DNA of 64,000 nucleotides, taken from NCBI GenBank assembly GCA_021904315.1, contig CM038917.1:10834041-10898040 (forward strand), given 5' to 3'. The notes under the pieces were generated by a model. The model saw only the letters and a list, made by a program, of their open reading frames with translations, was not told the DNA's origin and did not search any database. Shown piece after piece: positions 8,801-51,986 of this stretch (positions are counted from its first letter, which is position 1; each line of letters starts with the position of its first letter). A program made the translations under genes and the position numbers. Origin of the DNA: Sphagnum magellanicum (lineage: Eukaryota; Streptophyta; Sphagnopsida; Sphagnales; Sphagnaceae).

Positions 8801-11690
8801 GTTTGGGTGTCTTTATTCAGGTTTCTTTGTAAAGAGTTTTCCTGTAATGTGGGAGAGCTGGCACTTCTGCTGGTTCCTCCACTTTGGTTTTGCCCGTTTC
8901 AATCAATGGGATGTGAACAAGAGAACACATACACCATCAACCAACAACAATGAGGAACACCAAATATATATAGTCTTGAAGCAACACTGTAGAGATGAGA
9001 ATTAATTGTCGGAAATGCTGAACTGATGGTGTGGAACACTACTACTTAACAAGATAACTGAATTCTAAACATGTTTGTTATTACATTTGTGAAAACTGAC
9101 ATGTTTGAGAACCCACTGAGTAAGAAAAATATATAAATCCTGAAACCCTGGTCAGCTCTCACCTGCACAAAATACTCTTTTTAATAAGAACCGATCTGGT
9201 TATCACAAACCTATCCAGGAACCAAAACTGACAGGTTTTATTAATAAAAGAAGTGAGAACAGCCTAACACTAGCAATATCCAACATTGGGTGGCTATTGA
9301 ATTAGCTATGAACAATTATAACCGACAATAATCCAATTGTTTATGTCTTAATCATAATGTATCAGAAAAAAAAGAAAAAAACCATTTCATATATGCTTTT
9401 CCATACTTCTCTGTACTTGTCACTTTGTGAACCTGAAAAGCCATTAAACCAGAGTGAGTACTAGAAATTGCACCAAAATCTTGATTCTGAATTTTTTCAA
9501 TTACCCAAAATTCATGGGTATCACTAAAATAAAGCACTCGGCCCACACTGGATTAAGCTCCTAAACCCTAAAGGCCCAAACAAAACCCACCCAAGCTAGA
9601 TTCTAGAGGCTGAATCAGAGCAAACAATCATGCCAGGTTTTGTAAAGGAGTAGATTGATTGCCTTTGTAACCAACCATTCATGGTTTTCAGGGTCAAATA
9701 ATAATATATTAACTCATCATGTAAGTGCAAGGAAAAAGATATTCTGTCATCACAAACTTTGAATGGTTGGTGAAAGAAAATATCCACCAATTGGCTTGGG
9801 TACCTAAATAGCCAAGAAAGTGAATAGATTGAGACTAGGTGCATTCAAAACCTTAATGGAAATAGTGATCCATGAGATCACAGAATTTGCAAAGCAATGA
9901 TCGCCAATCTAACCACCACCCAACCTTTGGACTTAGCTTAATTTTGATAGACCATTGTCACACAATGCTAACTTAGTCATGTTCTTTGGAAATGTTTTGT
10001 GTGAAATCCTCGATCAAGCTTACTTTCAATCACATAGTTGAGGAAGATGAAGTTGTCCATAAAGACTGGACACTAAGGAACACTTAATTTATTATTATTG
10101 CCATTAAAGTTTTTCAGCCCAAGCCTCGACTCCAAATCCATGACATCAAATGAACAAATTACCCACCTAAATTTGGTGCTAAAATCTACTAACCCTCACA
10201 CAAAAGTAGTTGGGTAGCATTATAGTTACTACTATCCATAGATTCACTTAGATGAGTGCATGCTTCATTTGTAAGGAGGTACAAAAATTGTCAAAAAAAA
10301 ACAGTTTTTTTTTCTTTTGCAAATATCTTCTGGAGTTAGATTTTATTTGATTTTTCCTGTTTATGTTGATTCTCTATTTTCCATATTGGCTTTCTAGGCC
10401 CCCTAAAAAAACAGTATTCTCCTTCTCAGGGGAATTCTTCCCCCGTGCCCCCGCAATTTATGGATGGGTTGAAAAATGCAGAAATAGGAGACCAAAGGTG
10501 CTTATCTCTCAAAGGTAGGCTTTTGATGGCATAATCCATTTCTGTGTTCTATTCAGTCACTATTGTTTTCCTATGTGGTAGGGTAGAGAGGCTGGTGTCC
10601 AGACACTTAGTGTCTCAGAGGTCTGCGAATTTCTCGAGAGTGCTCCTTTGAATTTCATGCCCAAAGAGGAATTGTAGCCTTATTATTTGCGCACCCACAG
10701 AAAGTTAAATCGTTGAAAAAGATGAAGAAATGACTCAGATGTGATTCTCCAAAGTAAGGGGGGGGGGGGGGGTCAAATGGTGGAAACGAAAAACCACCGC
10801 ACACTTGGAAGACTATTATCGAACACCCAAAAAAGTATTTGAAAGTCGTTCTAGTGCCCTTATGACTCAAAGATGATTTGAAGATCGTAAGGTTGCGCTC
10901 TTATAGCACTTTAAATCACTTAAATTGAACAAGAAATGAGAAAGTTATGAGCATTGAAAGTAAGAGGGGTAGAAGAGAAGAAAAACGGGTTTTATCACTT
11001 GGAAAAGCTTATTTCTCTTCTTGCTCTTCTATAATTACTCCTTTGCCTCTGCTGTTGAAAGACGAATTGAAGAGCTCAAGTTAGCGCTCCCATAATGGTT
11101 TAAATCACTCAAAATGGAGAAGAATTGAGAAAGATCTGCCAAATTGTTCGGTGATCATCGGTTTTAAGACTAAGTTATGTAAGTTACAAGCCCTCAGAAC
11201 TTGCAAGACCCACCATTACCACCACACAAACAACATCTCGGGCTACCAGACTTGTAGATGTGAGGGGCCGGCCTGGTACCCTATGAGGTCCGTTCCATTA
11301 TACATGACTCTCACTCCACCAACGAGAAGAAGCATCAAATCCGACATAAGTTCGGGTGAAGGATGAGTACACAAAGAAGTGGGAGAGAAGTTGAACAAAG
11401 TGGGTGCAGAATCTGTGCCCAAAAGACGGGAATGCATAATGCCACCCCACCACGGCCTCTTCCCTTTCACTACTTTTTACACCGAAATATCTCTTTCTTT
11501 CCCTTTCCCTTTCATCAACCCTTTTACCAACAATTGTTACCCTGGTACCTTGGCCAATTCGACACTAATTATATTTAATTTTTTAAGTGTTAAAAATTTC
11601 AAAAATTATTTCTTCCTAATCAAAAAATATTGTGAAGGATAATAGTGAATATTTAGGAATATTTCATTTGTTGAAATGAATTTTTCAAAA
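5822..11690. other. Non-genic stretch, no coding gene recognised
   Basis: About 5.9 kb without a supportable gene. It contains a poly-C tract (about 8017-8029), a 15-base poly-G run (10758-10772) and a diverged direct repeat pair (about 10870-10955 and 11060-11142). A segment around 11151-11290 reads like an eroded transposable-element end. ORFs of 60-105 codons are scattered on both strands without conserved motifs. Confidence 0.5.
10870..11142. repeat. Diverged direct repeat pair, about 190 bp apart
   Basis: The two copies share, with substitutions, GATTTGAAGATCGTAAGGTT versus GAATTGAAGAGCTCAAGTTA, then GCGCTC, then TTTAAATCACT(T/C)AAA and a GAGAAAG block. This type of internal direct repeat is common in LTRs or decayed retroelements; no element boundaries are visible. 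Confidence 0.5.
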
Positions 11691-11744
11691 TTAATTAATT
11701 ATTGGATGGGTATGTGTTCAAATGGCCAAGGTACTAGGATACTT

Positions 11745-12215
11745 CTCCAAATAATAGCACAATTGGTCGCATTTACACTAACAATAAATAAATTCCCCAA
11801 GTTTTTTTTACAATGTTTTGATCTAAAAAATTTGGCGAATTTTTCTCAAAGCATAGCACAATTAGTTAAATCTACACTATAAATAAATAAATTCCCCAAG
11901 TTTGTTTTTCAATTTTTTGATCTCAAAAATTTTACGAATGTTTCTCAAAGAATAGTACAATTAGTTGAATTTACACTATAAATAAATAAATTTCCCCAAG
12001 TTGTTTTTTTTTTCAATTTTGTGATATTTGAAAATTGGGCGAAATTTTCCCAAAGAATAGCAAAAGTAGTTCAATGTACACTAAAATAATAACAATTTCC
12101 CAAAGTGTTTTTTTAATTTAAAATTGAGCTATTTTGGAAATTTGGCGAATTTTTCCCACAGAATAGCACAATTAGTTGAATTTACACTAAAACTACAACA
12201 GTTTCCCAATTGTTT
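11745..12215. repeat. Tandem repeat, about five copies of a 100-106 bp unit
   Basis: Each copy contains AATAGCACAATTAGTTGAAT, then TTTACACTA, an AATAAATAAA-like stretch, TTCCCCAAGTTTTTT and a GGCGAATTTTTC block. The AATAG(C/T)A anchor recurs near 11752, 11852, 11951, 12055 and 12161. Copies are 75-90% alike by eye. The array ends about 0.8 kb upstream of the BBD start codon. Confidence 0.8.
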
Positions 12216-12229
12216 TGTCAAGGGACGAG

Positions 12230-13005
12230 AAAATTTGTCCCCAAAAAAAAAAAAAAACCATTGGGCCCAGCTTTCTTTTGCTATTTGGATTTTAGTGTAA
12301 TTTTTTGTCTGGATTTCTTTACTCTCGTCCTTCAGTTGCATTTGCATAGCTTGAGGTTGCTTGAGTTGTGTGTGCTTTTTTTCAAAAATTAAGACAAATT
12401 GAAGGGGTTGCTATGGTCGAGTTGCATTGATTTTGTGCTTGGAGCTTTCCTTCGATTTTTGGAGCTCTTTTTGTGTTGTCTGTGTTGTTGGAGCAAAAGC
12501 CTTCACTGTATTGTTTGTTTGTTTGTTTGCTTGTGTTTTTGGGGGCCGGGAGTGTGTCGCACTAAGTGTGTTTTTTACTAGATCTTCTTCTGCCAGGCGT
12601 TTCGTGATTCCGGATTTGAACTAGTTTTCGGCAATAATCTTCCTTTACTTGGAGTGTTGTAGATGCGAGTTTTGTGTCGAGATTTATCTCACGAAGATTG
12701 GAACTTCAAGGATCGATCTGAATTCTCTGTGTGCTTTTGTGGCTTTCTCGTTTGCATGGCTTTGTAAGATCCTGTCTGATCTACCTAGAGATCTTTGCGT
12801 GCAGATAAACTCTGCTCCCGTGCTGGTGCGACAAGCAAGAGACCTCACTACAGTTTCTTCAAGCTCAAGGAAGTCGTGAGTAAGAAAGAAAGAAAGAAGT
12901 TCGTGAGCTTGGAGGGACTTGGAGTTTTTTGCTTGTCACTTTTTTTTTCCTAGGGCGAGGAAGAGGAGAAGAGAGAACAAGTGTAGGAGGAGGAAAGCTC
13001 TCAAG
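12230..13005 (+). promoter_or_regulatory. Presumed promoter and 5' UTR of the BBD nuclease gene
   Basis: A T/G-rich stretch from about 12290 gives way to sequence of exon-like composition leading into the BBD start codon. Several ATGs precede the chosen start (12399, 12427, 12649, 12919), so upstream ORFs are likely if transcription begins around 12.3-12.4 kb. No unambiguous TATA box could be fixed. Confidence 0.4.
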
Positions 13006-14199
13006 ATGGCGGCGGCGGTGGCCGCAGCCGTGAGCTTGACGCACAACCATACCTACTTTACGGGATTGTATCAGAATTTCGCAGTGACGGCAAGGAGTTC
13101 TGCGAGAAATTCATTGCCGCCGCCGCGGCCGAAGAGAGTTGCGAAACTTGGAATACAAGGGGGAGGAAGATTTACCGGCTTCAACATCCTCCCAGGCTCC
13201 TCTACTGTCTTCCCGTCTGCCGCTTGCAGCAGCAACAACAGTAATGGCGAATCCAAACTCATATTGTCCACGGGAGTCGTCTGCAACCTCATGTCTTTCG
13301 ACAACGCAGGGAGTACAAGCGCGGATGATGATTCAGATGATGCCGATGCCGCCAGCAGCGTCTTCAGCGAAAATGACGAGGACTACGTGGATTGCAGCAT
13401 CTTGGAAGCACTGGAGGTGAAGAGCGGGCCAGAAGGATTCTTGATCAAGATGAGAGACGGATGCTACGTCAAGTGTGTGCACAACAAGCTGGAAGACCGT
13501 GGAAGCTTCAAGCTCCCCGATTACGCTCCGCAACCGGCGATCGTGCTCCAGACCAACGACGGCTCCAATCTCCTCCTTCCCATTATCGTCTTACAGCTCC
13601 CTTGTACCATGCTCTTGGAAGCTGTCCGCGAGTTTCATGTGGCCAGACCCACTGTGTACCAGGTGATGCGCGACATGCTCCAGTTGATGGGTTACAAAGC
13701 TACTCTTGTGAGAGTCACAAAGAGAGTCCATGAAGCTTACTATGCCAGAGTCTACTTGATGAAGGAATCAGAAGGAGAGGAAGAAGCTCAAGAAGCTGAT
13801 CAAGAATCTCAAGCTACAACAGTGAGCTTGGATCTTCGGCCTTCTGATGCAATCAACCTGGCGGTGAGGTGCCAGATCCCCATCCAAGTGAACAGGCAAC
13901 TGGCCATCGGTGATGGGGTCAGGATTGTGACCGAGCTTGAGAGGCTACCTGCACCCGCCTCGGTGCGCAGTCTTCATCAGAGGTTGTCGTCGTCGGCAGC
14001 AGCTTCAGCTTCTTCTTCGCTCATGGATCTTGATAGACCGGCGGAGACAGAAGGAGAGTGCCAGTCTGAGGCCCTGGAATTCGACCTCTTGAGAAGCATG
14101 TTCATCGCCGCCGTGGAGGAGAGGTACATCGATGCTGCAAAGCTGCGTGACGAGCTCGCGGACCTTCGATCCAAGAACCGCACGCAGACACAGACATGA
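13006..14199 (+). CDS. Bifunctional nuclease of the BBD family (BFN/DUF151 domain plus UVR motif)
   Basis: Intronless, 397 aa from ATG 13006. An in-frame ATG at 12919 would add 29 mostly basic residues; I chose MAAAVAAAVSL as the better start. In characterised plant and bacterial members this domain has combined RNase and DNase activity linked to defence. Residues about 125-150 open the domain (YVDCSILEALEVKSGPEGF). The BFN core follows: LPIIVLQLPCTMLLEAV, then RPTVYQVMRDMLQLMGYKA, RVTKRVHEAYYARVYL, an acidic insert of about 18 residues (EGEEEAQEADQES), and SLDLRPSDAINLAVRCQIPI. The C-terminus holds a UVR-type helix pair (FIAAVEERYIDAAKLRDELA). The N-terminal 120 residues are low-complexity, possibly a transit peptide or disordered tail. 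Confidence 0.92.
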   Translation: MAAAVAAAVSLTHNHTYFTGLYQNFAVTARSSARNSLPPPRPKRVAKLGIQGGGRFTGFNILPGSSTVFPSAACSSNNSNGESKLILSTGVVCNLMSFDNAGSTSADDDSDDADAASSVFSENDEDYVDCSILEALEVKSGPEGFLIKMRDGCYVKCVHNKLEDRGSFKLPDYAPQPAIVLQTNDGSNLLLPIIVLQLPCTMLLEAVREFHVARPTVYQVMRDMLQLMGYKATLVRVTKRVHEAYYARVYLMKESEGEEEAQEADQESQATTVSLDLRPSDAINLAVRCQIPIQVNRQLAIGDGVRIVTELERLPAPASVRSLHQRLSSSAAASASSSLMDLDRPAETEGECQSEALEFDLLRSMFIAAVEERYIDAAKLRDELADLRSKNRTQTQT

Positions 14200-22528: not shown

Positions 22529-25500
22529 ATGATGCGACCGAGTGCTGAGCCACTCCGGACGGCGGCCAAAGATGGAGATCTCGATGCAGTGCAAAAGCTT
22601 CTCCAACAGCAGCCTCCCGTTGATGTGAACGAGCCGGACGAGGATACCCACTTCACGGCTTTATACGTGGCAGCACGAGCCGGGCACGCCCTCGTGGTGG
22701 AGCTCCTCTTACAGCAACCAGGGATCGATGTAAACTTCCATGTCCACAAAACCGCCTTGTGTATAGCTGCTCAGAACGGGCACGTTGCAATCGTCAAACT
22801 CCTTCTAGCCGTGCCGGGGATAGATGTCAATGCTGGGTATGCAGGTCTTCGCAGCGTCGATTACTGGGCGGCCTTGACATATTCACCCCTGCATGCCGCC
22901 ACGACCTCCAACCATCTAGAGATCGTGAAGCTGCTCTTAGAGCGTCCAGAGATCGACGTGAATGCTAACAAATCTTTTCGAGAATTGACCCCTTTGCATG
23001 TGGCGGTCTGGAAGCCGAATCGGAAGTACTCGAGGCCCTTGAAGAAGCCTAACAAAGTCTCAAGGTCCGGTTTCCATGTGGATGAGTCCCGGAGGGAGGT
23101 CGTCTTGGCTCTACTGGCACACAAAAATCTGAATGCGAATCTCGAGAACCGGTCGCGACATACCCAGTTGCACTACATGGTGTTCTTCGATGCTGAGATA
23201 GATCTGGTGGTGCGTCTCTTGCAACGGCCGGAAGTAGACGTCAATGCGCGGGGCGAAGGCAACATGACTCCTTTGCACCATGCAGCTGTAAAAGGCAACC
23301 TTGAGATGATTCAGCTTTTCCTCCGGCACCCGCGAATCATCGTGAATTTTCATGACATGTACAGGAGCACGCCACTGTTCGCAGCTGCAGAAAAAGGGAT
23401 GGCAGCAGCGGCCCAGCTGCTTCTGGAAAAGGGAGCCGACATCCACGCCGTTTCTTCCAAACTTTCTCAAACATTTTCCAGCAAGTGGACATATCGCAAC
23501 ACACCGTTGTACTGTGCTGCGGAGGGAGGACACAAGGACATGGTCGAGCTGCTGTTGAAGCAACCAGGCATACAATCTGAAATTGCGCCCACCAATAAAA
23601 ATTGGTTGACGCCCTTGCACGCTGCAGCATCCAGGGGTCACAACGCCGTGGTGAAGCTGCTCCTGGAGGTTCCAGAGGTGCGGGCAAGTCTGAACGATGG
23701 AACTAAATCGAGCGGCAAATCCACAACCGCTCTTCACTTGGCCTGCAAGCACGGACACCCAGAAACTGCGGCCTCTCTTCTGTCCTGTGAGGAGGTGAAC
23801 GTGAACGTAAAAAACGGCGAAGGCTTCACGCCCTTACACCTTGCCATTCGAAAGGGCCACACCAAGGTTGTGAAGTTGCTCCTCAATAAATTTGCAGAAG
23901 TCGATTCTCAGTCGGTGCACTTGACTGCTACGTTACGGAACGAGGTGGGGCTCACAATTGCATCTCTGTTAGCTGAGAAGAACAGGGAGGCGATTCTGCA
24001 GCAAGTGGAAGAAGAGAAAGATCCCCTAGGACGAGAGTTCCTCGAGAAGGTACTATACAAGACTCAAGCTTTATAATAAATCCGTGCAGAAATTGAAACA
24101 TCATGACTGCTAATTTTCCGCTTCCTGATCGAATTCTTTGGCACCTTCCTTGTCAAATTCATCAGCAGAAATTTGGTATTTTGCTTGCAAACTCTGAAAA
24201 TTTTCCCTGAACAGAAAAAGGATTGAGACTCCTCCCAAAACCCATTCAAGAATGCTTATTTTACTCATTCCAAGCTCGCCTTAACATGTTGAGCAAAAAT
24301 GCTGAGCCATAACCATTTTACTGAGCCTGTTGGGCAATTCTTTACTATTAGATCTTCACTCAAAACATGCTATGGATAAGTGTGTTGGTGGAGATGCTCT
24401 ACCGGTTTGTGAATTGTAAATCTTTGCTTGGTCCCTCACAGGTGAGGCTTGTTGAAGATCCGATGGGTCAGTTCACTGTGGCTCTGAAGCAGCACTTGAA
24501 AGAAGGAGGTCGCAATGACGTGATGTTCGCAGATCACAGCCCTTCCAAATCGCCTGTTGTGATCAAGTACTATCAGGACGAAAGTGAACGTCAGCACAAC
24601 ATCGACCTATTGCAAGGTAAGCAAACTTATGGGAAATGACCTCAGATGATAGCATCCCATTGCACAGATCCCATAATCTCGAAACATTTGGCCAAACACG
24701 CTGATCAAGATGCATGACATGCACATCTTGCAGGTCTGAAGCAGGAGGGAGTTCAACTCAAGCACGTGACAAACCTGTTCAGCTATGAAAGCACGCCTTA
24801 CTTCACCTGGAAGAAAGAGAACCAGCTGCGCCCCTACGCGCTTGTGTTTACATCGGAACCAGGCGCAGGAGGAACGGAGCGGCGGACGCTGCGTAACCTG
24901 ATGGACCGTGGAGTGCTCACGCACCAGTACAACGAGAAGCGACAAGTTTTCGAGCTGGTCGTGAGTGCCATCCTGGAGCTTCACCGAATAGACATTGCTC
25001 ACGGCGATTTGACGCCCGAGAATTTGCTCGTCTACTCTACAGAAGGCGCTCTTGAGTGTAAGGTGATCGATTTGGACAACGCGAGGCGGAAGAGCAAGGA
25101 GTGGCGAAGGGAAGGGACTATCATCTACTACTCCCCCGAGCTGGCAAAGGAGCACACCAATCCTGATAATGCAGGCCGCGGCGTGCAAGCCACACTAGAA
25201 GGAGATCGGTGGGCAATCGGTGCGATCTTATATGAACTCGTCACTGGTCAGAAGCTCGTGTGCGCCTTGCTCGACAAGGCCGAAGGTAAAAGGCGTTTCC
25301 TTTTGGGCAAAAAATGGACCCAAGCCGCCAAATTATGAGGAAAAAACAATCTAAAGTTTCAACAAGTAGCCAAATTATAGGAGGAATCGCAAATTTTTCT
25401 TCTTCCCCCTCTGAAATCTTGACAGATTTGGCTAAGTCCTCTTGTGCATGATCCCAACCTGCCTTCTTCACAATTTTGAAAAAACGAAACACTGGTTGTG

Positions 25501-27797
25501 ACAGGGGAAAATTATGAATCGTCCGATGAAGGGAGAGCGTTAGAGAAACTGGCAGAAGTGAAGCAGGAAATGCTTGACGACTTAGGCGACGTGATCATAG
25601 ACGGAGGTTCCGACTATTATAAGCAAGCAGGGGAACTTCTGCAGAAGGTTTTGAAGACGGACAAGAATCGGCGATGGTCCATAGAGAAGATGTTGGACTC
25701 TAGTTTTGTGAAAGGCGGTTCTACTCTTAGTTCCAAGAAGCAATTGATAACCCTATTTGACAACGTCACCAACGTTTCTGGTACCAACCTATATCCTCTC
25801 AATCCGTTGCACATTTGACAAGGTTTGAATTGAATCGATAGCAGCACCTCCAGACTCTTATTTGTCACATGCAATATTTCAATGGGATTGTTGTTTGCTG
25901 CAGGGAAGCTTGATGAAGCTACAAAGGAAATGAAACAGCTTCATGAGATCATGAAAACACTGAAAGGTACCATATGACCATCTTTTTAGGTCTTGCTCTG
26001 ATTTTTTGGGTGATTGTGTGATGCATAGGTAGCAGCAACATTGCTGCACAAATTCGAAGCAACCTGCAATTTTTTTACTTTTCCAAGGTGTGGATGGCAA
26101 TTTTAGGATGTTCGTTCATTCACTGATGAACTTGGATTTTGCTGCTGGGAATCTTACAGCCTTAGTGGGTCATTTGGTGATGGGCTTGCACAGATACTTG
26201 CACAGATGTGCAAAAACAGATCGAGGCAATGCCAATACCATATAAGCTTGGAGAGAAAATCCTTTCGTACCAGAAAGGATTGTACAACTTGGTTAAAAAT
26301 GTGGGCTTAACTCCATATCCACGCTGCTTCATTGTTCTACCCTCCAGCCTGGATGGTAATTCTCAAGCTCTGAGCACTCTCTCTCCTTCCTGCCTGCTCT
26401 TCATTTGCACCTCCACACCTTCAACCCTCTCTGTCTTTCTTTTTTTTCCTTTCCAATCCATTTTCTCAGCACAGGTATTTTTTTGTTTCATGGTATCTTT
26501 TGTGTTCCTCTCTTCTTTTCTCCTGATCTTTTTTCTGTTACTGAAACACAGTTCAACTCTACACAATCAGCTCCAGAGCAAAGAATTGCAGTAACATATG
26601 GTTTTGGTTAAATCTTTTGGCCTTGCCTTCACACCACCCAAGACTCTCCACTAATTTTATGTCTCAAACTTTATCAAGCTATTGGGAGAATCCATTTCAT
26701 TAGTTATTCCATAGATCAGATGTCACAGATCGGTGTTAAATAAGTTTCAACTTGGTTTGGGCATAGATATGGAGTTGAAGAACATGAAAGACAAGGATCG
26801 CCAGGAGAAGCTGCTTGACATTCAAAATTTTTTGGAGGATGTTGCAAAGTCTGTGAAAGATGGCAAGCCAGATTCTCTCCTTGCCTACATTGGCAGCAAG
26901 ATTGGAAACAGGTTGCATAAGAAGGTAGGCCTTCTCATAGATTAAAGATATAAGCTTGTGAAGCTTCAAATACAATGCATGAATTGGATTCCATCTGTTC
27001 TTTCCAGCTCTAAGCGGAACTTGACTCTTTTGTGTTTGTGATGTAGGTGTTCATTGCTCTTGTATGTGAGGAATGTTGGAAGCCACAGTTGCCACCCTAT
27101 CCAGTAAGAGTGAAGAGACAGGAAGCTGTTAAGTTGATTGAAGCTGTGAAAATCTCAACTTGCTTGTGCCAGGTTGTGAATATGGCTGCTGGTATCGTGA
27201 ACTGCCTTTACCCAGTGGTTCCAAGTCAACTGGTGCCTAATCAACTCATTGACTACTTGAAAACAATTAAAGACATTCATGAGCAAGGAAGCGAAGTAAA
27301 AAAGTTCGAGCCTCTAAATCGTGATATTGAAACTGGAAGTTATGCAGAACCAAACAAGTTGTCTGATGCTGATGCAAGGTAAATTATGATGCTTTTCACA
27401 ATTGCCCATAGTTTCTACAGATATGACTACAAAAGTTGAGCTTCAATAAGATGTGCAAACTTGAGAAACAATTATGTGAAAATGATTGTTATATTGCTAA
27501 GCACAAAACATTCTGCATTTTCAATTTTGAACTGTTCTCCTGTCCTAAGTGATTTGCTAATGGTTTTGAAAAAGGCTGTGTACTACAGGCAATGCAAGGA
27601 TTTGTTTGAACTCAAAGCATGTTGCCTTGGTCATGTCCAATCTTGCTGACAAGTTGGTCTATCTGATGTGAAGGTCGCTTAACGAGTTCTTGAAGCTGGT
27701 GGATGCTGGTCAAGATTGGGGGGACTTGGAACCAAGAGTCGAGTTTGGCAAAGGTGACCTGAAGTGGGTCTGCAAGAAATGTTTCCAAATAGATTGA
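22529..27797 (+). CDS. Ankyrin-repeat protein kinase-like protein with unrecognised C-terminal region
   Basis: Nine exons: 22529-24049, 24442-24616, 24734-25285, 25505-25780, 25904-25966, 26206-26355, 26767-26924, 27047-27378, 27674-27797. All introns are GT-AG, phases agree, and the total is 1116 codons plus TGA. The frame is also open from an ATG at 22445 (28 more residues). Residues 1-500 hold about a dozen ankyrin repeats (TALYVAARAGHALVVELLL; TPLHLAIRKGHTKVVKLLL). Residues 508-760 are kinase-like: VVIK lysine at 549, HGDLTPEN catalytic loop at 655-662, DLD at 678-680 where DFG is usual, SPE at 699-701, and DRWAIGAILYEL. No glycine-rich loop is clear. Residues 830-1000 look helical. The C-terminus (PPYPVRVKRQEAVKLIEAVK through KWVCKKCFQID) matches no domain I know. 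Likely cytosolic signalling; partner and substrate unknown. Confidence 0.88.
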
Positions 27798-28599: not shown

Positions 28600-28850
28600 C
28601 TTAGTTTCAGGAAATCAACAGAGGCAAATGTAGCAAAAATTAATGATTTTAGTGACCATTTTACTGGAAAGACAAGAAGATAGCTAGTTAATTAAGACAC
28701 ATTCATGTATAAGTAGGACTCCTATTGAAATGAAAATACCAGATCTTGTGTATTCTTCCTCACTTCTCAGAGCAGATCATTCTTTATTTGTGTCTTCTTC
28801 TGTCTCTACCTTCCCACATCGATAAATCATCAGTTCACTGCTCATAGGTT
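28600..28850 (+). mobile_element. Possible LTR 3' end preceding the Copia gag remnant
   Basis: The sequence just before the gag start has the look of a Copia LTR R-U5 region: an AATTAAG...TATAAGTAGGACTCCTATTG stretch, then pyrimidine-rich TTCTTCTGTCTCTACC and ATCGATAAATCATCAG. A standard tRNA-Met primer site (TGGTATCAGAGC) is not preserved, and the left LTR boundary cannot be fixed. Confidence 0.35.
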
Positions 28851-29560
28851 ATGGGCCCACTCATGGACAAGTTTAAAAACACAAACTACATGTTATGGCA
28901 ATTCAAGGTGGAGACGATGTTGAAGGCAAAGGAGTTGTGGGGCTTGATAGAAAAGATCAAGACAGAGGTCAAACCAGATGAAGCTGATTTCATAGCTATT
29001 GCAACATGCGCAAAGAAGGAGAACCAAGTGTGAAACTTGCTCATTCAAAGCCCATCCAACAATTAGTTGATGAAAGTTTGAAAAGAAACCACTGCACATG
29101 GCATCTGGGAAGCTCTGGCCAAACGCTTCACAGATAAGGGATTTGCTGACAAGATTTTTCTAACCAAGAAGTCTTTCATGTCACAGATGAATCCTCTGGA
29201 CACAATGGAACAGCATGTAACATGCTTGGAGTGATAGCAAAAGAATTTGATGTAGTTGGAGTTAGAGTTCTTAACGAAGTGAAAGTCATGGTACTCTTCA
29301 TCAATTCACCAAAAAGCTCTCGGCATTTTATCACAGCTTTGGAGTCCCTGAAGAGTCCCTGAAGCCTGCAGACCGCACCTAGGACGATGTGTGCACAAGA
29401 TTGCTAAATCAAGAACTAATGCAGAAGGAGAAAAGGCAGGACTACTGAAGCAGCTATCTCACACAGAAGTAATCTGATTCCAAGAAAGGTATGAGAGATA
29501 AAAGCAAGGATGTTTACAACTACGGCAACATACACTAGTCACCTCAGCAGTTCTGGTAGT
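28851..29560 (+). pseudogene. Copia-type retrotransposon gag remnant
   Basis: Opens with MGPLMDKFKNTNYMLWQFKV, then ETMLKAKELWGLIEK, the typical N-terminus of Copia gag (UBN2/retrotrans_gag family). A stop interrupts it at 29031-29033. Later pieces in shifted frames still match gag: a WEALAKRFTDKG-like stretch near 29108, and an ITALESLK-like stretch followed by a CTRLLNQE-like one near 29335-29415. Around 29505 VYNYGNIH looks like a decayed CCHC knuckle. No integrase or reverse transcriptase is seen, so this is a broken fragment. Confidence 0.8.
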
Positions 29561-33793: not shown

Positions 33794-34912
33794 TCATGTT
33801 CCATAGCTATGATGTAGGTCTTGAATTGCAGTGAACATCTTCCGGCGGGCACCAACAGCATTCACTCCCATTTCCCTTAGATCCTCCATTGTCAACAATG
33901 GCAGCACCTCATTGTCCACCTCATGGAGCTCAAATATCTCTGCATACCTTGCCAAATCAAGGACCCGGAGCCATCCCCGAACACCACTGGTGAGAGTGAT
34001 GCATTGTCTGATTGTTGGTTTAGCTGCAGGAAGAAGGTGCGCACCATTCTCCCCTGCCATATCACTGTCTCCTCCTCTCTGTCTAGTACCCAGATTTTGC
34101 TCCAAATCCTGTTTTGCAACAGTGCGCTGTTTGTCACTCCTATTATTGCGCATAGGTCCATCCTCAATAGCTCCTTGGATTTCATCCCCATGGCTATTAG
34201 GGTGATGAGCATCCCCTTGTTCTTCCTCAGCTGAAGTTGTTGCAGGATCCCTTGAATCTGCTGCCACTTTTCCACCATCACCATAAAGTTCTAGAGAGCT
34301 TGAAGAAGTTTTAGCAAACGAAGTTTCATGCTCATCAACAGGCAAAGCTCCATCTATTTTAGGATTTGCAGTATCATTGACATCACCAGCAGTAGCACCA
34401 GCAGCACCACCAAGGTTCACGAATCCTTCCTCCCTCCGCTCCAGTTTCCCAGCAGAATGATCAGCAACACCAAATCTAGTCCCCAAGCCCATTCCGGAAC
34501 CACCCGGAGCTGCCCGCTTCCGCCTCATCTGCTTCACCTTCCTGCCAGCGATTCCCAACTTTAACCCTGGCTCAACATCCCCCCGACCACTAGTGCTTGC
34601 AAGAACAGCTTCCGTCTTGATCTCCTCTTCATCCGCACTCTGCTGTTGCATGGTGTCCGCAGCTTCCAAAGGACTCCACCGCTCATCGCGCTGCTGCTTC
34701 CTCTCCACTGCAACATGGTCTAAGAGACGCGTCCGCGGTGCCTTTACCGGACTGACACCGGATTCCACCACCTGTTGCTGCTTCTTACGCTTAGCAGGCT
34801 CAAGGAGGAACGAAGCCTTGAGGTAAGGTGCAGAGTACCCTATCTCCCCTAAGCGCACGCTCGGTCGCCGCTTCCGCTTCTGAGGAGATACCGGCTCTTG
34901 CACTTCCTCCAT
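33794..34912 (-). CDS. SAM (sterile alpha motif) domain protein, plant-specific architecture
   Basis: Intronless coding region, 372 aa. The N-terminus has the plant SAM-protein signature KRKRRPSVRLGEIG with a basic, probably nuclear-targeting stretch; residues 40-300 are low-complexity, charged and probably disordered, with more basic patches (KVKQMRRKRAAPGG). Residues 312-366 are a SAM domain: GWLRVLDLARYAEIFELHEV, then DNEVLPLLTMEDLREMG and VGARRKMFTAIQDL. The SAM domain usually mediates homo- or hetero-oligomerisation; a nuclear adaptor role is inferred, with no catalytic residues. Start is the first ATG (MEEVQEPVSPQKR). A donor-like CAG|GTATGG on the minus strand near 35265 suggests a 5' UTR intron ending shortly before the ATG. 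Confidence 0.88.
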   Translation of the reverse strand: MEEVQEPVSPQKRKRRPSVRLGEIGYSAPYLKASFLLEPAKRKKQQQVVESGVSPVKAPRTRLLDHVAVERKQQRDERWSPLEAADTMQQQSADEEEIKTEAVLASTSGRGDVEPGLKLGIAGRKVKQMRRKRAAPGGSGMGLGTRFGVADHSAGKLERREEGFVNLGGAAGATAGDVNDTANPKIDGALPVDEHETSFAKTSSSSLELYGDGGKVAADSRDPATTSAEEEQGDAHHPNSHGDEIQGAIEDGPMRNNRSDKQRTVAKQDLEQNLGTRQRGGDSDMAGENGAHLLPAAKPTIRQCITLTSGVRGWLRVLDLARYAEIFELHEVDNEVLPLLTMEDLREMGVNAVGARRKMFTAIQDLHHSYGT

Positions 34913-35520
34913 GGTTCTTTAGAATCCAGATGCTCTCTCAATCCAGAGCTTGAGCTGAAACTCCCGCAAAACAAACCAAGCCGCATCAAGTACCATCCAA
35001 ATTGAGACAAACCTAAGCCCCAAAAAAGAATTCAGAACAAGAAGTGTAGGGAAGAAGAAGAAGAAGAAGAAGAAACGTCATCCCGCAAACAAAACAAAAA
35101 GCAAAAACTTCAAACGCACACAATTGACCAACAACAGAAAGAGAAGCAACGGAACAAGAACAGAACAGAACAGAACAAGCAACACAACAGCAGTCAATCG
35201 CAAGAAACAAACAAACAAACAAGGGTCAGGAGGATTCAGTAACCGATACACTGCACTCCATACCTGATTAAAAAAACCACGACTGGATTCGCAGAAGGAA
35301 GTTGACAACTCTAGTGGTGACCACCAGATCCCGATCCAAAAGTCAGTCACCGGAACCTCTTCACAGCAACAGATTCCAAGAGAAGAAAGAAAGCTGGAGT
35401 AGACGGGAAGAGAAGTGCGAGCACAGAGTCCGAAGTTGGCGATGGCGGCAGACGAGGTCAAACACACGACGACCGCTTTACGCGGGCGGGCGACGTTGGG
35501 ACACGAATTTCTACGCAATA
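34913..35520 (-). promoter_or_regulatory. Presumed 5' UTR and promoter of the SAM-domain gene
   Basis: GC-richer than the flank beyond it. Contains a (GAA)n tract (about 35055-35075), an (AACA)n-like tract near 35160-35220, and a candidate 5' UTR intron donor on the minus strand near 35265. The T-rich block from 35540 marks the edge of the gene-poor region. Confidence 0.45.
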
Positions 35521-35685: not shown

Positions 35686-36720
35686 GAAACAAAGACAAGT
35701 TTAGTGTATTCAGGTATGGCCAATATTTTCAAATGTGTTCCAAGTTGATTTATTTAGTGCACCAAATAAGTGAACAAGTGAAGACAAAAAAAAATTAAGT
35801 TCACTTATGAACTATGAAAACTCTCAAATATTTCACCATCCAAAAATATAATCTTCAAAAAAACCCTCTAAAGGAAACCAAAATCCTTCATGATATTATA
35901 ACTCTATTATAACTAATCTCAAGTTTCAACACAAGCCAAAAATATCATCTTTCAAAAATCCTCATATAAAAATAAACCTATTATTATTACCTAGGAGCCA
36001 AAATCCCTTAAGCTATTGTAACTCTATAATGAATCTCAACACAATATCCTTTGCCTTGGTAGGCAAGACCACCAACAAATTCAAATCACCAAATCTAGCC
36101 ATCCCATCTGCTTGAAAAAAAGCCATCTTCAGACTTAAACACAACCCTATTCTGCTGAAACATTGAAAACAATGGTTCATCCTTTCTACCATTTTCATTC
36201 ATCCTCTAAAATTCTCTAAAAAACCTACCAAACCCTATTAACAATTTAATTTATTGTTCACTTCAAATAACTAGGGAAAACAAATTCAAACCACCAAATC
36301 CAGCAATTTCATTGGCCATAACATTCTTTCTGCACACCTACACACAAGCCTATTCAATACCCTCGGTATATTTATTTATACACTAATACTAAACTCCTTG
36401 TTTGTATACAAAGAGGGTTAAAAAATTTTGGAGAATTTTTTTTTTAATTTAATTTTTTTTATTATTATTTTCCCTTTGGCACCCACAATTCTCTCAAATT
36501 TCAATTTTTTTTTTGGGTGAACAAGACAAGTTTAATGCATTCAGGTATGGCCAAAACTTTTGTGTGTGGTCAAGTGCATTTTTTTAGTGCATTACTAAGT
36601 CTTTTTTTTTTTTTTTTTGGTTTTTTGGGTGAACAACACAAGTGTAGTAGTGCATTCACGTATGGCCAAATTTGTGTGTGTGGTCAAGTTCATTAAACTA
36701 GTGCTATATTTGTCAAATGT
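35686..36720. repeat. Repeat family: three copies of a unit of about 90-115 bp
   Basis: The motif ACAAGTTTA(G/A)TG(T/C)ATTCAGGTATGGCCAA recurs near 35693, 36524 and, as ACAAGTGTAGTAGTGCATTC, near 36637. Each is followed by a TGTGTGTGGTCAAGT-like stretch and (T/A)TTTAGTGC. The last two are in tandem (period about 115 bp); the first lies about 830 bp away. Confidence 0.65.
35843..36030. repeat. Diverged tandem duplication, about 100 bp
   Basis: AAAATATAATCTTCAAAAA...CCAAAATCCTTCATGATATT then AACTCTATTATAACTAATCTCAA is matched by AAAATATCATCTTTCAAAAA...CCAAAATCCCTTAAGCTATT then AACTCTATAATGAATCTCAA. Confidence 0.55.
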
Positions 36721-39700
36721 GGCCTTTCATGCATGGATTGGCTCAATCTTTGTTGTGTTGTTTATTATTAAACCTAGATAGATATGTGGATTCTTCCAAA
36801 TGGATACATTATTTATGGGGGCATCCTTTCCTAGGCTTCTAGAAAGTGTGAGCGGTGTGCATCTTGTAAGTCATGGCAATTTATTTTGACTTGGGTGGTG
36901 GGGGACACACCATACAGCCTTTTTTTTTAATTGGCAAAATTTTGTATCAAAAAAAGAAAAATTCAAAATTCAAAATTTGAAAATCAAGTAATTTTGGAAT
37001 TTTACAATCGCCGGAAGTGAGGAGGAAAAAAACAAATTAATAAAAGTCACCAAGATTTCTATACTTGGTTTTTAATGTGTGGCCAAAATATTAAAAAATG
37101 ATTCAGGATTTCTATGTCATATTTGGTTTATAGCCAGATTTGGCTAAATCTTACCACAGATGATCGTCACTTTTTCGACATCTTCCTGTGGATGATAGCC
37201 ACTTTGGCTACAAACAAAAATTCTTGAAAAAAAACACTGACAACTTGTGATTTTGAACACACCATATTTTTAAAGAGATTCAATGCCAATACCAGCTGAT
37301 ATGTTCAAAAGTAGATACCCGCCCAACATTGATTGGGGGACAACAACTATTGGATCATTTCCATGGTATGAGTTAGTACCCCTTGTTGTTCACTCATATC
37401 CATACCCACCATTATAACCTATATACTAGTGTAAAAATTATACACAAATATATAATAGGGTACCTGAATTGGGCTAGTGCCTAGGTTTGAAAACACAACA
37501 TATGTGACCAATGAGATTGTTAGAATTGGAGCCTTGAATTGTTTCGAGAAATTTGCTTCGGAAACTGGCTCTACATGTTATATTACTTTCATAGACTTTG
37601 TGCCTCGGTGTGAAGAAAAAACTTCGAGACCAAAAGATTGTTGGAATTGGTGCCTCAAGTTGTTTTGAAGAGGTGCTCTAGTGAAGAAATTCTTTAAGGT
37701 TGCATGTGAGCTTTTGCACCCAATTTTAGCTACTAACATATGCTTGTTTTGTTTCTATTAAAGGATGCACAAATCTTAACATTTAGATATGCATTTGTCA
37801 ACCATGCAACCTCCTCCTCCTCATACTAAAGAACAAGATTCTAGCACATTACTTGAGTTCTTTTGTTTACTCACTTATGTTTTTGTTGCATCACGTGTTC
37901 TCTTGACTTTCATCTGAATTGCGTATTTTTAAATGTCGATGTGACAAATGTATTCAACTCAATGGAGTGAAAGGTTATGTTCTAAGACGTGGAGGAACAA
38001 GAGATGATGGCATTGTTCAATGCAACTCTTTTGTCTTTTTTGTTTGCACATTTTGTGCATCAAAGTCTCATTTTATATTATAATCATTGTAATCACAAGG
38101 ATGATGTCATCAGCATTACATGGAACCTACCAAGATGATCTTTTTAGAGAATCTTTGTTTTCCAGAGCCCACCATAGAACACTATAACTTTACAATAGCT
38201 TGTTTTCTTTTGTGTTTGATCCCCACCATTTTTTTAATGGCATTCACAATTTAGTTCTTTCATAGTTGGTCACACTACTAGCTTTCAAACGTTTAGCGAT
38301 TAGTTCCTTCCATGGCAATAAAAAAAATTTGATGTTTACATCAACACAAAGTGTGATTATCAAAAATTGCAACATCAATTATCAAACTACCATCAATTTT
38401 TAAGCTGATTTTTATCTAATAACTAGCAGTGGTGAAAGAATTGAATAGCCACCCATTATAGGAACTATCGGATGTTAAAACATGAAAAAATCAATGAAAT
38501 AGAACATGCTTAAAAATTGCATAATAAAACATGAAAGACCACATGAAATAAAACATGCTTGAAAATTGTTAACCAACTTTAAAAATTGGTTATGTTCAAA
38601 TTTGAGTGCAAGAATTCTAAGATTCTAAGTCTATTGAATTTTAAGGATGTGAGAGGCAACAACTTAGCCCATGTTCTTTTTACTTAATATGTCATCATGT
38701 TTGTAACTTTTGAAAAATAGATTTTATTCCAACAAAATAAAGTAACCATGTTAGGATTAGATTTTATGTCTTTTTTTCCAATGACCTCAAGAATTGTCAA
38801 CATATGATCTACTAATATTAGTGAAAAGACAATCCATTTTTGAAAATAACTAAGTTAAATATATGATTTGAAATTTTAAACCATCAAAGTTCTTTCATAT
38901 GCAAATATTTAAAGAACTAGAAATGATTTTTATTTTTTTAATTAGATGATTTTACTCAACATAGTTGACACTAACTAACTAATTTTTACATATTTGCACC
39001 AATAATGTTTGGAGATGAAGGGTTCCAAAGGTTCCTAGTTGTAGTTCTAATCATTTTATATATTTATTTATTTATTTAACTATCTTATTCAAAAGTCAAC
39101 CAAATTAAGGAAATTAGAACCTTCAATTTGACCAAAATTCAAGATATGAAGACAAATTTGTTGTGAAAAAATATAGTAATACAAAATAATGGGTCAAAAT
39201 CCTCTTACCACCAAGATTCCAATGATATTTTTAATTTCATACTTCATCTTCAAATTTCTTTAAGGAACTTCCACCACTACCACTAACTACTCATAAACAA
39301 TTTCAAATCCTATGCAATAAACATTATTTGGTGTTCATTTTCAATACTTTGTACTAACTTTCATTAAAATGTATTCACTTTAAAGATACCCAACAATTGA
39401 AACTGAAACCAAGGATTGAGGGTGAAATTTAAAGTTTAAACTAAGGATCACTTTAAGGATAAATTCAATGAGTCTCAATTATATATGTTCTAAAATATGC
39501 AAACTCCCAACCTAGTAAGTCAAGAGGTGGCAATAGTGTTGGCCACCTCACTTTCCACCTATTGCCAACCTTTAGCCTGTTCCCTATGACTTGTATGGTT
39601 GTTTGAACATTGATTCATTTTGGCAATTAGTACTTTGGATTTATGCTGTAATAATTTACTTCAAATGTATGTCCTTCTTTCCTCCATGTCCTTCTTGGTC

Positions 39701-42260
39701 AAGGTTGTTTCATTTTTTCATAATGGAGTTAAGTTAATTTATGTCTTCTTTTGACCCTATTTTTTTGTTTTGTGTTACATAAGGCAAATCTATTCTCCTT
39801 TTTATTATAATAAAAACATCATTCCATTCTATAATTTTTAAACATTTAAAATTATTTTAAACATTCAAAATTACATGTATAAAAAAAATATGCTTCCAAG
39901 AACTTTTATCACTTACAAAACATTTTGTTGAAATCCAATTATCCTACAAACATTTGGACAAAGGTTATTATCTTATAAATATTTGTACTAGGGTTATTAC
40001 ATAATAGTATTTCATTTAATGACACAAATGTAAAGTGAAATTGTTTATCAAATACCTTTAGTTATTAATAAACAATATACTACCAAAAGACATTCAACTT
40101 TATGATATGATAACTGATATGCAAATAGTTTTATGAATCTAATCCAATTGGCATCACAAATTACATGTATGCTCAAACCTATACTTTATATCTCACATAC
40201 CAATGCATCAAATTTGATAGGTTTTGACATGTTATAGACCCATTTATGTTTTTTTAATGATTTTTTATGCAAGATGTTGTGTATGGATGTGATATCAAAT
40301 AGGTATTTTAGGCTAGTTAGATATTTGAGTTAGGATGAATTAGTTAAAATAATTATGGACTAGGGAACTTGATCTCTTATGTTTTGAACAATACAACTTT
40401 TTTTTTGGTCATCCTAGGGTCTATATGGCAAGTTTTGGATAGTAGGACTTTGTTTCCATTTTGGGTGTATAAGTTAAGTTTTTATAATTGGCAATTAGTT
40501 AAAATTTTTGACATGTGATGCACTAAAATAATGACAATTGTTAAGATTGGGTAGTTCAACTTTAACTCTATTCAACTCTTCTACATTCTAGTAAAGGTCC
40601 TTCTTTCTTTGGTTTTGCATTTTTTAGGAGATTGAAATAGATAAAGAGGTTGGAATTATGATAAAATAAGGAGTATGGGAAACAATTGTTGTTATTGAAG
40701 CAAAAAAGGGAGGCAACATGATGAGTAAATGAGGAAGGACAAAAAGGGTAAATGAGAGGGGAGACAAACCAGGACATTTTGGGGAGGGGTTATGTTGTCT
40801 ATGCATTTTTTTGGTTTTTTTTTCCCTTGGACACACAAGAAAATAATGAGGCAAAGTATGAAACTTGAAAAGGATGTTTAGGGAGATGGGGGTTCTATTT
40901 TGCTAGATAAGAGCCTTGTTTTCAATAAAGGATGTCGGGTGAAATGAAAAATTGAATGAACTTGTGTTATTTAGGATTGAAAAACACAATAAAAAAAGGG
41001 GAAGGTGCTTTATGAGAGTGTTATGCAAAGTACCTAACATAATTCATGGTTTGTTGTTTGTAATATTGTTTGGTGTTTGGAAATTTTGCTTCATGTTTAA
41101 TTAACCCATGGTGAAAGTCTAATTATAAAAGGATAAGTAGGAGACAAAAAAGGAAGTTATGAAGGGTGAGTTGTGAAATGTTTCTTATCAAGTTGTTTTT
41201 TTCCATGTTCAAATAAATAGTAAAGGGGGTATAGAAAAGAAATTATCATTGGGGTAAAATCAAAATTAAAAAAAACCACACCAATAATACCAAAACAATT
41301 ATGAACCACATCGATTTTTTAAAATATATAATCATAAATTAAGTCAAATGAAATCTTTTAAAAGGGCCCCAAAAAGAGCATGAATGGTTCCTTTTAGTGT
41401 GATTTTACCCATTGTGAAAGTTTGATTTAATAATTTTTTTATAAAAAAAACTTGTCAGTTAAGATGTGATCAAAGAATCTGATTAATTGAAAATAATTTT
41501 TAAATAATAATTTTAGTGCATAATAGTATGCCCATAGCACCAATCGTTGGGTAGAATCTAAAGGGGATGATATCACAACCCATTATGTTAAACATATAGA
41601 TAGTTTGGTCAATTAGATGTTTTGTTGTTTAGTGATAACAATGGGATGCATTTTCATTATTATTGTGAATACCCTTGGTACAATATAACATAAGAGAGAA
41701 TAAGAACCTTAACTACTATTTGAATGATTCAAACAAATGAACAACATTGAGATTATAAGGAATAGGAAAAAAATAGTAATTTAAGGTTGGGGCATTGAGA
41801 TTGTGAACAAAAGATGAAAGCTAAAAAATCAACTTGGGGTGTTCTATCATAAGTTATTGTATCAAATCCAACTCTTTCAACTCACCAAAAAGATGTGCAA
41901 TCTTTTTGGGATAGTTCACCAAGAGGTCAAGGAGGATTGAATGAATTAATTGGGAGAACATTCAACTAGTTCAGGTGGGATAACCTTAATTATTTTGGAA
42001 ATCATTAATGGCAATGGGTCAATCAAATGGTTGTTAATCTGGCAATAGGGTTTTTGACAACTCAAATGACTTCCCAACTTATAATATCGCCATATAGGCG
42101 TCAATTCCCAACTTCATCACCATCACCACTAGGGGGTTAATTTGATTCCATCACACCACCATCTAAGAGTTGTTCTAACCTTATGATCACACTACCATCT
42201 TCACCCGCCTAGGGCATGACCTATTCCAACCACTATCCCACCTATTTTTTCTATAATTAC
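36721..42260. other. AT-rich gene-poor block, part 1
   Basis: No gene is recognisable. ORFs are very short and composition is strongly AT. It includes a 122-bp diverged tandem duplication at about 37514-37680 (GATTGTT(A/G)GAATTGG(A/T)GCCT anchors at 37514 and 37636). Confidence 0.6.
37514..37690. repeat. Two-copy tandem repeat, period 122 bp
   Basis: GATTGTTAGAATTGGAGCCT then TGAATTGTTTCGAGAA recurs as GATTGTTGGAATTGGTGCCT then CAAGTTGTTTTGAAGA. Confidence 0.5.
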
Positions 42261-42580
42261 CTCAACCTGGAAAAGCAAGGAAAAAGGAGACTTTGATTCT
42301 CATGTTAAGTTGTTTGAACAAACATGTTGGATTAATGATGAACAAAGTGAAGAGTTTCAATTAAAGTTGTTTCCTTGCACTTTGAGGGGGGATGAATTTG
42401 ATTGGTATATAAGATTTGAAAGTTAATTTCCTCGATGTACATGGGAAGAATTGAAGACAACTTTTAGATTTGGATTAATTAATCCTTGTGCATGACAAGA
42501 TACCCATAACATTGATCCTTGGGTAGAATCCAAAGGGGATGAAAGCACAACCCATTATGTTAAACAAATAAAAAGTTCAA
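41518..42580. repeat. Direct duplication of a segment of about 90 bp flanking the Gypsy gag remnant
   Basis: 41518-41612 and 42490-42580 share TTGGGTAGAATC(T/C)AAAGGGG, then ATGA, then ACAACCCATTATGTTAAACA. The second copy directly follows the gag remnant; the first lies about 970 bp upstream. It could be an internal duplication of the element or a nested second copy. Confidence 0.6.
42270..42485 (+). pseudogene. Gypsy-type retrotransposon gag remnant
   Basis: One frame reads DFDSHVKLFEQTCWINDEQ, then FQLKLFPCTLRGDEFDWYIR, a stop, and CTWEELKTTFRFGL. This is the typical retrotrans_gag pattern (FEQTC, FP-TLRG--WY, TWEELK--F). It is broken by a stop after FES, and no pol domains were found around it. 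Confidence 0.75.
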
Positions 42581-42624
42581 GGTATATTAATGGATTTATG
42601 TAATTAATTTAATTTTTTTTAACA

Positions 42625-43060
42625 TAAGATAAGAATGGATTTCACCTTAAGATTGAGTATGGTAAAAAATTGTAATAAAATCTAGATGTCTCTATTAGAG
42701 AATCTAAATAAGAACTTGAAGTGATATTTTACTATAAAAAAAAAACTTGTGGAAAATCATGCTCTCAAAACTAAACCTTGAATCATACTTTTTAATGGAT
42801 AGTTTTTTCATATCTCATGCTATCATCAATTTTTATAAGTTTTGATATGTCAGACACATTTACATTTTCTTGATGATTTCTAATGCAAGATAGGAATGAA
42901 ATTCATTTTAACATTGAACATGGTAAAACTAATGTAATGAAATTTATGTATTTACTTAAGAATTTGCAATAAGAGGGCTGAGATGATATATTTTAACCCA
43001 ATAAATAGAGAAGTGAAACAAGCTTTCCCAAAGTTCAACCTCTCAATCATACTAAAGTGA
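42625..43060. repeat. Diverged tandem duplication, period about 265 bp
   Basis: Both copies share a (A)GATA(A)GAATG(G/A)A(T/A)TTCA block, a GTATGGTAAAA/ACATGGTAAAA block and a CTCAAA/CTCAATCATACT end. A further diverged piece (ATATCTCA, then TTTTGACATGT, then GATGA/AATGATTT and ATGCAAGAT) is seen near 40190-40280. Confidence 0.5.
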
Positions 43061-47740: not shown

Positions 47741-47749
47741 TTAATTGTC

Positions 47750-48205
47750 TCATGTGTTAAACCAAGGTTGTGTCACCACAATAGAAGGAAGGTGAAGATC
47801 TATTGATGCAAGAATAGTTGAAGAAGAATGAACCATGTAATTGATGGTAATTGGATAGTTGTTCAAGTTGCTAAAAACATGACCACACACAATATTAACA
47901 ATAACAACTCCCATTGGTAAACGACAATGAATGGATTTTAAATGGACCCTGTACTTCAAAAGCTCGTTGTCAAACAACTCATTGTACACATTGTCGTCAA
48001 ACATATTGACATTAGATTTCTTGGAAGATTCTTGAGGAACATGAACAACGGCTTTTCTAGTGGTAGAAACATGATCAATAGTATAATCAACAATATCATT
48101 TGTAGGAGCCACAACATTAAGAACTTGAAAGCTTATTCCAACAAACTTAGAATTTGAAAAATCACTGGCAAAACTTCTTGCAAAAAACAAACATAAAAAA
48201 AACAT
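47750..48205 (-). CDS. Unrecognised 151-codon ORF in AT-rich DNA
   Basis: Continuous ORF, longer than chance ORFs in this very AT-rich block. It begins with a hydrophobic stretch MFFLCLFFARSF that could be a signal peptide, then a mixed region with HVSTTRKAVVHVPQESSKKS. I recognise no domain. It may be a real small gene, an exon, or a decayed transposon ORF. Its left end is a stop, with nothing conserved beyond it. Confidence 0.25.
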   Translation of the reverse strand: MFFLCLFFARSFASDFSNSKFVGISFQVLNVVAPTNDIVDYTIDHVSTTRKAVVHVPQESSKKSNVNMFDDNVYNELFDNELLKYRVHLKSIHCRLPMGVVIVNIVCGHVFSNLNNYPITINYMVHSSSTILASIDLHLPSIVVTQPWFNT

Positions 48206-51965: not shown

Positions 51966-51986
51966 GGGGGGGGGGGGGGGGGGGGG
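51966..51986 (+). repeat. Poly-G run of 21 bases
   Basis: Uninterrupted G homopolymer in an otherwise AT-rich region; true length may be uncertain because of sequencing slippage. Confidence 0.8.

What the first reader, a model, noticed from the sequence alone, without database searches (positions are those of the whole stretch)
22529..27797. Ankyrin - atypical kinase - unknown C-terminal domain protein in a plant
The nine-exon reading frame closes exactly, so this is an intact gene. Its order (a dozen ankyrin repeats, kinase-like domain, helical linker, then about 150 residues ending KWVCKKCFQID) is not one I know from flowering plants. The C-terminal block looks like a folded domain with conserved-looking Trp, Pro and Cys positions, yet I cannot match it to a known family. 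This is the best candidate in the window for an undescribed system, perhaps a lineage-specific signalling or immune-type family.
Basis: partly seen in the sequence, partly recalled or inferred. Interest (0 to 1): 0.7.

Follow-up and report, generated by a model that had tools for sequence, protein, structure and literature searches.

The report
Moss ankyrin-kinase gene with unnamed tail
An intact peat-moss gene makes a protein with ankyrin repeats, a protein kinase and a conserved but unnamed end domain, and a second full-length copy lies elsewhere in the genome; it is a real member of a known class with an unexplained tail, not a proven new system.

Summary
The nine-exon model (22529-27797, 1116 aa) is real: 8 of 8 introns are GT-AG and the frame closes. 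The same genome holds a full-length second copy with nine exons and the same intron phases, 74% identical, dN/dS 0.19 (NG86) or 0.27 (YN00). The copies lie on contigs 11 and 15, which, if contig numbers are chromosome numbers, descend from one ancestral chromosome. Ankyrin plus kinase is a named plant class (ANK-PK; 9 of 54 ankyrin proteins in Physcomitrella). The kinase keeps the expected Lys, Asp and Asn residues but reads HGD and DLD for HRD and DFG. The tail (about 895-1116) has no significant match in Pfam, NCBIfam, PDB sequences, viral contigs or prokaryote genomes, and was found only in these two genes of this genome. Two conserved CxxC pairs suggest a zinc site. No other eukaryotic proteome could be searched, so 'lineage-specific' and 'immune-type' are untested. 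Verdict: new variant of a known kind, moderate-low interest.

The parts
22529..24049 (+). exon 1: about twelve ankyrin repeats (aa 1-507)
   Evidence: model; Pfam Ank_2 E 3.5e-70; 76% identical in the C15 copy
24442..24616 (+). exon 2: kinase N-lobe (aa 508-565)
   Evidence: conserved in the copy
24565..24567 (+). candidate ATP-binding Lys549 (VVIK)
   Evidence: motif position; its role is inferred from general kinase knowledge
24734..25285 (+). exon 3: kinase core
   Evidence: 79% identical in the copy
25000..25023 (+). catalytic loop HGDLTPEN (HGDLKPEN in the copy)
   Evidence: aligned to HRDLKPEN of solved kinases
25063..25080 (+). VIDLDN, in place of the DFG segment
25505..25780 (+). exon 4: end of kinase (Pfam match ends at aa 817)
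25904..25966 (+). exon 5: linker
26206..26355 (+). exon 6 (or from 26194): linker and start of the C-terminal block; invariant PRCFIVLP at 26319-26342
26767..26924 (+). exon 7
27047..27378 (+). exon 8: core of the C-terminal block; CEEC (C972, C975) at 27065-27076
27674..27797 (+). exon 9: KWVCKKC end (C1109, C1112 at 27771-27782) and stop
26301..27797 (+). unnamed C-terminal domain, about aa 895-1116 (start chosen by eye)
   Evidence: no significant Pfam/NCBIfam/PDB match; found in two genes of the genome

Best explanation
An intracellular ANK-PK signalling protein of peat moss. The ankyrin stack would dock a partner (inferred), the kinase would phosphorylate it or a neighbour (catalytic residues shown by motif, activity inferred), and the C-terminal domain, with a CxxC pair near its start and another at its end, would be a zinc-stabilised regulatory or assembly module (inferred). 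The gene is one of a pair, probably kept since a Sphagnum whole-genome duplication (inferred). Location in the cell was not tested.
For: Full-length paralogue with nine exons in the same order, the same phases at 8 of 8 introns, all GT-AG; 74% identity over 1108 aligned codons, dN/dS 0.19 (NG86) or 0.27 (YN00), tail 150 codons 0.23 or 0.28. Kinase match above cut-off, with VVIK, HGD..PEN, IDLDN and GDRWAIG kept in both copies. 7 of the 8 cysteines after aa 860 of the window protein recur in the copy, among them both CxxC pairs. Contigs 11 and 15; the paper gives chr 4, 10, 11, 15 as one ancestral group and Ks peaks 0.406 and 0.643 (passages); our YN00 dS is 0.654. The neighbouring SAM-domain gene has its two other matches on contigs 4 and 10, the same group.
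Against: No expression, biochemistry or reliable fold. DLD for DFG and HGD for HRD may mean weak activity or none; the window copy has Thr where the paralogue has the usual Lys of the catalytic loop. NG86 dS is 0.84, away from the 0.643 peak; contig numbers are not chromosome names; and no other gene of the window was found in the 118 kb of C15 around the copy. The contig-10 match of the SAM gene is weak and has three stops inside. The zinc site is a guess from four cysteines; exon-8 models have pLDDT 47 and 51.
Confidence: 0.55

Rival explanations
1. The kinase is a pseudokinase and the protein a scaffold: ankyrin repeats and C-terminal domain bind partners, and the kinase fold switches shape on ATP without phosphorylating.
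For: HGD, DLD, no clear glycine-rich loop by eye; Thr in place of Lys in the window copy. Ankyrin plus pseudokinase is the known build of animal ILK (pseudokinase status seen in abstracts listed; the ankyrin part is recall).
Against: Lys549, Asp657, Asn662 and Asp678 are present and conserved in both copies; the kinase is the most constrained of the four segments measured (dN/dS 0.13 or 0.18).
Confidence: 0.27
2. The C-terminal block is a divergent member of a broad unnamed eukaryotic C-terminal domain (fungi, invertebrates), so the architecture is a moss version of a widespread modular signalling family. It can be true together with the best explanation.
For: Recall only: such proteins are remembered to carry, in the same order, a PRLFIVLP-like strand, an FLCE.C-like strand and a KWVC..H end; here PRCFIVLP, ALVCEEC and KWVC.KC are invariant between the copies.
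Against: No library held such a family: Pfam gives nothing significant, the motif words are in 0 papers, a strict pattern has 0 matches in viral contigs. The loose pattern in the own genome gives 26+24 places against 15+19 for the control; 30 of the 50 places were fetched and none encodes a relative (best profile row E 1.9).
Confidence: 0.4
3. A lineage-specific immune or stress receptor family of mosses.
For: Unnamed tail; ankyrin repeats as a possible sensing surface.
Against: Two genes found in the genome, pairwise dN/dS well below 1 in each of four segments, no second copy in the window. These do not exclude an immune role.
Confidence: 0.08

Closest known systems
ANK-PK subfamily of plant ankyrin proteins (PMC4939350; first part of three of the text read)
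   Same: Ankyrin repeats plus a protein kinase in one plant polypeptide; 9 of 54 ankyrin proteins of the moss Physcomitrella are put there.
   Different: Atypical HGD/DLD motifs and an extra conserved C-terminal domain. By PF00023 this protein has 9 repeats, equal to the highest number that study reports; about twelve by eye. Whether any of those nine Physcomitrella proteins has the tail, or the same kinase motifs, was not testable.
Plant integrin-linked kinases (PMC5376563, listing only)
   Same: Ankyrin repeats before a kinase domain.
   Different: From recall, plant ILKs are about 450-500 aa Raf-like kinases with few repeats and no such tail.
Pkinase (PF00069), with weaker Kdo/WaaP (PF06293) and fungal kinase (PF17667) resemblance
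   Same: Pkinase 65.7 bits; Kdo 32.1 bits (cut-off 21.3) over the catalytic loop.
   Different: DLD in place of DFG. PF17667 is below its cut-off (18.1 against 24.1). Only the two copies match exon 3 at E 1e-6 among 66 scored candidates.

Membership tests
Plant ANK-PK class | At least one ankyrin repeat | tested here: met
   Ank_2 E 3.5e-70, 9 Ank stretches
[quoted passage not shown]
   Pkinase 65.7 bits, cut-off 31.7; spliced model closes
Active protein kinase | Conserved VAIK Lys, catalytic Asp and Asn, metal-binding Asp | tested here: met
   VVIK, HGDL(T/K)PEN, VIDLDN in both copies; motif roles from general knowledge
Active protein kinase | HRD and DFG motifs in canonical form | tested here: not met
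   HGD and DLD
Active protein kinase | Phosphotransfer | not testable with these tools
   needs a biochemical assay
Integrin-linked kinase family | Closest kinase relatives are ILK/Raf-like | tested here: inconclusive
   best solved kinases are MSK1 (S6 kinase alpha-5), phosphorylase kinase and calcium-dependent kinases at E 1e-7 to 3e-7; none is ILK in the 60 of 939 rows shown
Named C-terminal domain family | Match above cut-off in Pfam or NCBIfam | tested here: not met
Unnamed fungal/invertebrate C-terminal domain (recall) | Profile match to those proteins | not testable with these tools
   no eukaryotic proteome on hand
Whole-genome-duplication pair | Copies on chromosomes of one ancestral group with dS near a duplication peak and shared neighbours | tested here: inconclusive
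   C11/C15 and YN00 dS 0.654 fit; contig numbers are not names, NG86 dS 0.836, no shared neighbouring genes found

The most novel reading that the evidence does not exclude
The C-terminal block is an undescribed zinc-binding signalling domain, its metal held by two CxxC pairs about 134 residues apart in sequence, that in mosses became fused to an ankyrin-kinase and was kept in duplicate since an ancient genome duplication as the output or sensing part of a separate intracellular kinase pathway.
Probability: 0.25. Interest if true: 0.55.

Novelty: new variant of a known kind. Interest (0 to 1): 0.32.

Why it matters
If the tail is a real unnamed domain shared across eukaryotes, this moss pair gives a plant member in which to find its job; if it is moss-only, it marks a kinase pathway that flowering plants lack. 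Either way the gene is intact, present in two full-length copies and under constraint, so it very likely does something.

Tried and rejected
Chance reading frame or pseudogene: rejected by the full-length constrained paralogue. Expanded or tandem family: not seen at the sensitivity (the tool says counts of large families are lower bounds). Viral or prokaryotic origin of the tail: 18 and 414 pattern stretches in viral contigs and 132 in bacterial/archaeal genomes, 0 relatives; single-protein scans reach close relatives only, and the alignment scan used only two peptide patterns. PDB rows dropped as chance: lactate dehydrogenase (best E 0.034), FliS, a DsbA, uS17m, plasmepsin X. Pfam rows dropped as chance: Snapin_Pallidin 0.2, DUF7379 0.21, NPV_P10 0.31, Cauli_AT 0.37; Cytochrom_C550 0.057 and Docking 0.16, both for the paralogue's tail only. 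Structure of exon 8 alone: pLDDT 47, and 51 with the paralogue row; too poor for a fold search, and none was run. First check of the pattern loci printed a cut list; it was repeated in full (7 rows at E 1.9 to 9.5, none a relative). That the paralogue's exon 6 settles the acceptor: rejected, its length lies midway. Literature: 0 papers; 20 of 112 listed; 7; 15 of 67; 0; 0; 19; 6; 12 of 14; no paper on this gene was seen in these listings, which cover open-licence papers only. Papers: PMC4939350 first part of three read; PMC9946827 passages; PMC11218826 passages; the rest listings only. Bifunctional-nuclease neighbour as a second synteny test: not completed.
Full report
What is there. Nine exons join into 1116 codons with one stop at the end, and 8 of 8 introns are GT-AG. 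Every intron has stops in each frame, and each exon is free of stops only in its used frame, the final stop apart. The first in-frame ATG after the upstream stop is at 22529. One choice is open: exon 6 can begin at 26194 or 26206; both stay in frame, and the paralogue's exon 6, 156 bases, lies midway between the two lengths, 162 and 150.

Where it comes from. The window is G000:C11:10834041-10898040 of a 438,994,042-base assembly in 31 contigs. The Sphagnum divinum assembly is given as 439 Mb (PMC9946827, passage). It would mean a moss, not a flowering plant.

The second copy. The last 151 residues, searched against the whole genome, gave four matches from four candidates: exons 8 and 9 of this gene and exons 8 and 9 of one gene on C15. 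The C15 region holds the whole gene, ankyrin to tail. Spliced by hand it has nine exons at C15:1203732-1197493 on the minus strand and codes for 1118 residues; its 8 introns are GT-AG and have the same phases as the window gene's. Identity is 74% over 1108 aligned codons: ankyrin 76%, kinase 78%, linker 62%, tail 68%. dN/dS (NG86, YN00) is 0.19 and 0.27 overall, 0.21 and 0.29 ankyrin, 0.13 and 0.18 kinase, 0.21 and 0.33 linker, 0.23 and 0.28 tail. So each segment, the tail included, shows purifying selection averaged over the two branches. Searching with the paralogue's tail (223 aa, E up to 10) again gave only these two genes, exon by exon (8 matches of 8 candidates); exon 3 of the kinase gave the same two at E 1e-6 (66 candidates scored). 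The tool calls its counts lower bounds for large families.

How the pair arose. The Sphagnum genome paper groups chromosomes 4, 10, 11 and 15 as descendants of one ancestral chromosome after two genome duplications, with Ks peaks at 0.406 and 0.643 (passages). Our pair is on contigs 11 and 15, and dS is 0.654 by YN00 but 0.836 by NG86; the paper used another program. The nearby SAM-domain gene (33797-34918) has its two other matches on contigs 4 and 10, again that group, though the contig-10 match is weak and broken by stops. Against it: in the 118 kb of C15 searched around the copy (1145500-1263499) no other window gene is found; besides the gene itself only window stretches 10791-11744 (at several places) and 56572-56755 match. 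A pair kept from the older duplication, amid lost or moved neighbours, is the likeliest reading, provided contig numbers are chromosome numbers. A later dispersed duplication is not excluded.

The kinase. Pfam Pkinase scores 65.7 bits (cut-off 31.7) over aa 526-817; Kdo/WaaP scores 32.1 (cut-off 21.3) over aa 632-690. In alignment with solved kinases the catalytic loop HRDLKPEN reads HGDLTPEN and the DFG segment reads DLD. The paralogue has HGDLKPEN. VVIK, HGD, PEN, IDLDN and GDRWAIG are kept in both. The residues needed for phosphotransfer are thus in place by sequence, in a non-canonical setting. NCBIfam's best row, an antiphage-defence kinase, is far below its cut-off (45.7 against 460 bits) and reflects the kinase fold only.

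The tail. Aa 750-1116 match no Pfam family above cut-off (best E 0.2); the window's tail alone gives 0 rows at E up to 10, the paralogue's two chance-level rows; NCBIfam 0 families for the last 151 residues; PDB sequences nothing better than E 0.034. Between the copies PRCFIVLP, ALVCEECWKPQLPPY, AAGIVNCLYP, KLSDADARSL and KWVC.KC are invariant. Seven of eight cysteines after aa 860 recur, including the pairs C972/C975 and C1109/C1112. I read the pairs as a possible zinc site; that is inference. With both rows, the exon-8 model has a few strand or bridge residues around CEEC and then two helices, but at pLDDT 51, and the single-sequence model put a helix there instead (pLDDT 47), so neither counts as evidence.

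A lead from memory. The order PRLFIVLP-like, FLCE.C-like, KWVC..H-like is one I recall at the C-terminus of fungal and invertebrate multi-domain proteins without a family name. Nothing here could test it: 0 papers hold the motif words, a strict pattern has 0 matches in viral contigs, and a loose pattern in the own genome gave 50 places against 34 in the control, of which the 30 fetched hold no relative (2954 frames searched with the tail profile, best E 1.9). If the recall is right, the tail is a broad eukaryotic domain and the novelty shrinks to the combination.

Comparison with the known. Ankyrin plus kinase is a named plant class, ANK-PK, with nine of 54 ankyrin proteins of Physcomitrella in it (PMC4939350). 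This protein meets both defining features. What sets it apart is the kinase motifs and the tail; whether Physcomitrella members share them was not testable. The repeat number does not set it apart: by PF00023 it is 9 here, the highest number that study reports. The claim of an immune family has no positive support here: two genes found, constrained, dispersed. The one survey of NLRs across plant lineages that I saw in passages (PMC11218826) speaks of kinase-NLRs and does not hold the word ankyrin.

Verdict. Observation confirmed; interpretation partly supported; a new variant of a known kind, interest 0.32. The open part is the tail, and one profile search of eukaryotic proteomes would settle whether it is new.

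Noticed in passing
33797-34918 (-): SAM-domain protein ORF (SAM_1 E 5.8e-15) with matches on contigs C4 (70% identical) and C10 (47%, three stops inside).
   Followed up: partly
12907-14196 (+): Bifunctional nuclease domain protein (BFN_dom E 1.4e-17).
   Followed up: no
2878-4209 (+): Fasciclin-domain protein with a His-rich stretch (Fasciclin E 2.1e-06).
   Followed up: no
28848-29033 (+): Short ORF weakly like DUF4219 (20.8 bits, below the cut-off of 27), reading to me like the start of a copia-type gag, just downstream of the gene.
   Followed up: no
10791-11744: Stretches that match the C15 region at several places (70-88% identity by blastn); a 99-base tandem array follows at 11747-12189.
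   Followed up: no
36001-54000: Long AT-rich stretch, 23-34% GC in 2-kb windows against 38% for the whole window.
   Followed up: no
23114-23833 (-): Open antisense frame of 240 codons over ankyrin exon 1, also matched in the C15 copy (56%); probably a by-product of the coding strand.
   Followed up: no
25000-25023: The catalytic-loop Lys of the paralogue is Thr in the window copy, a possible functional split of the pair.
   Followed up: partly
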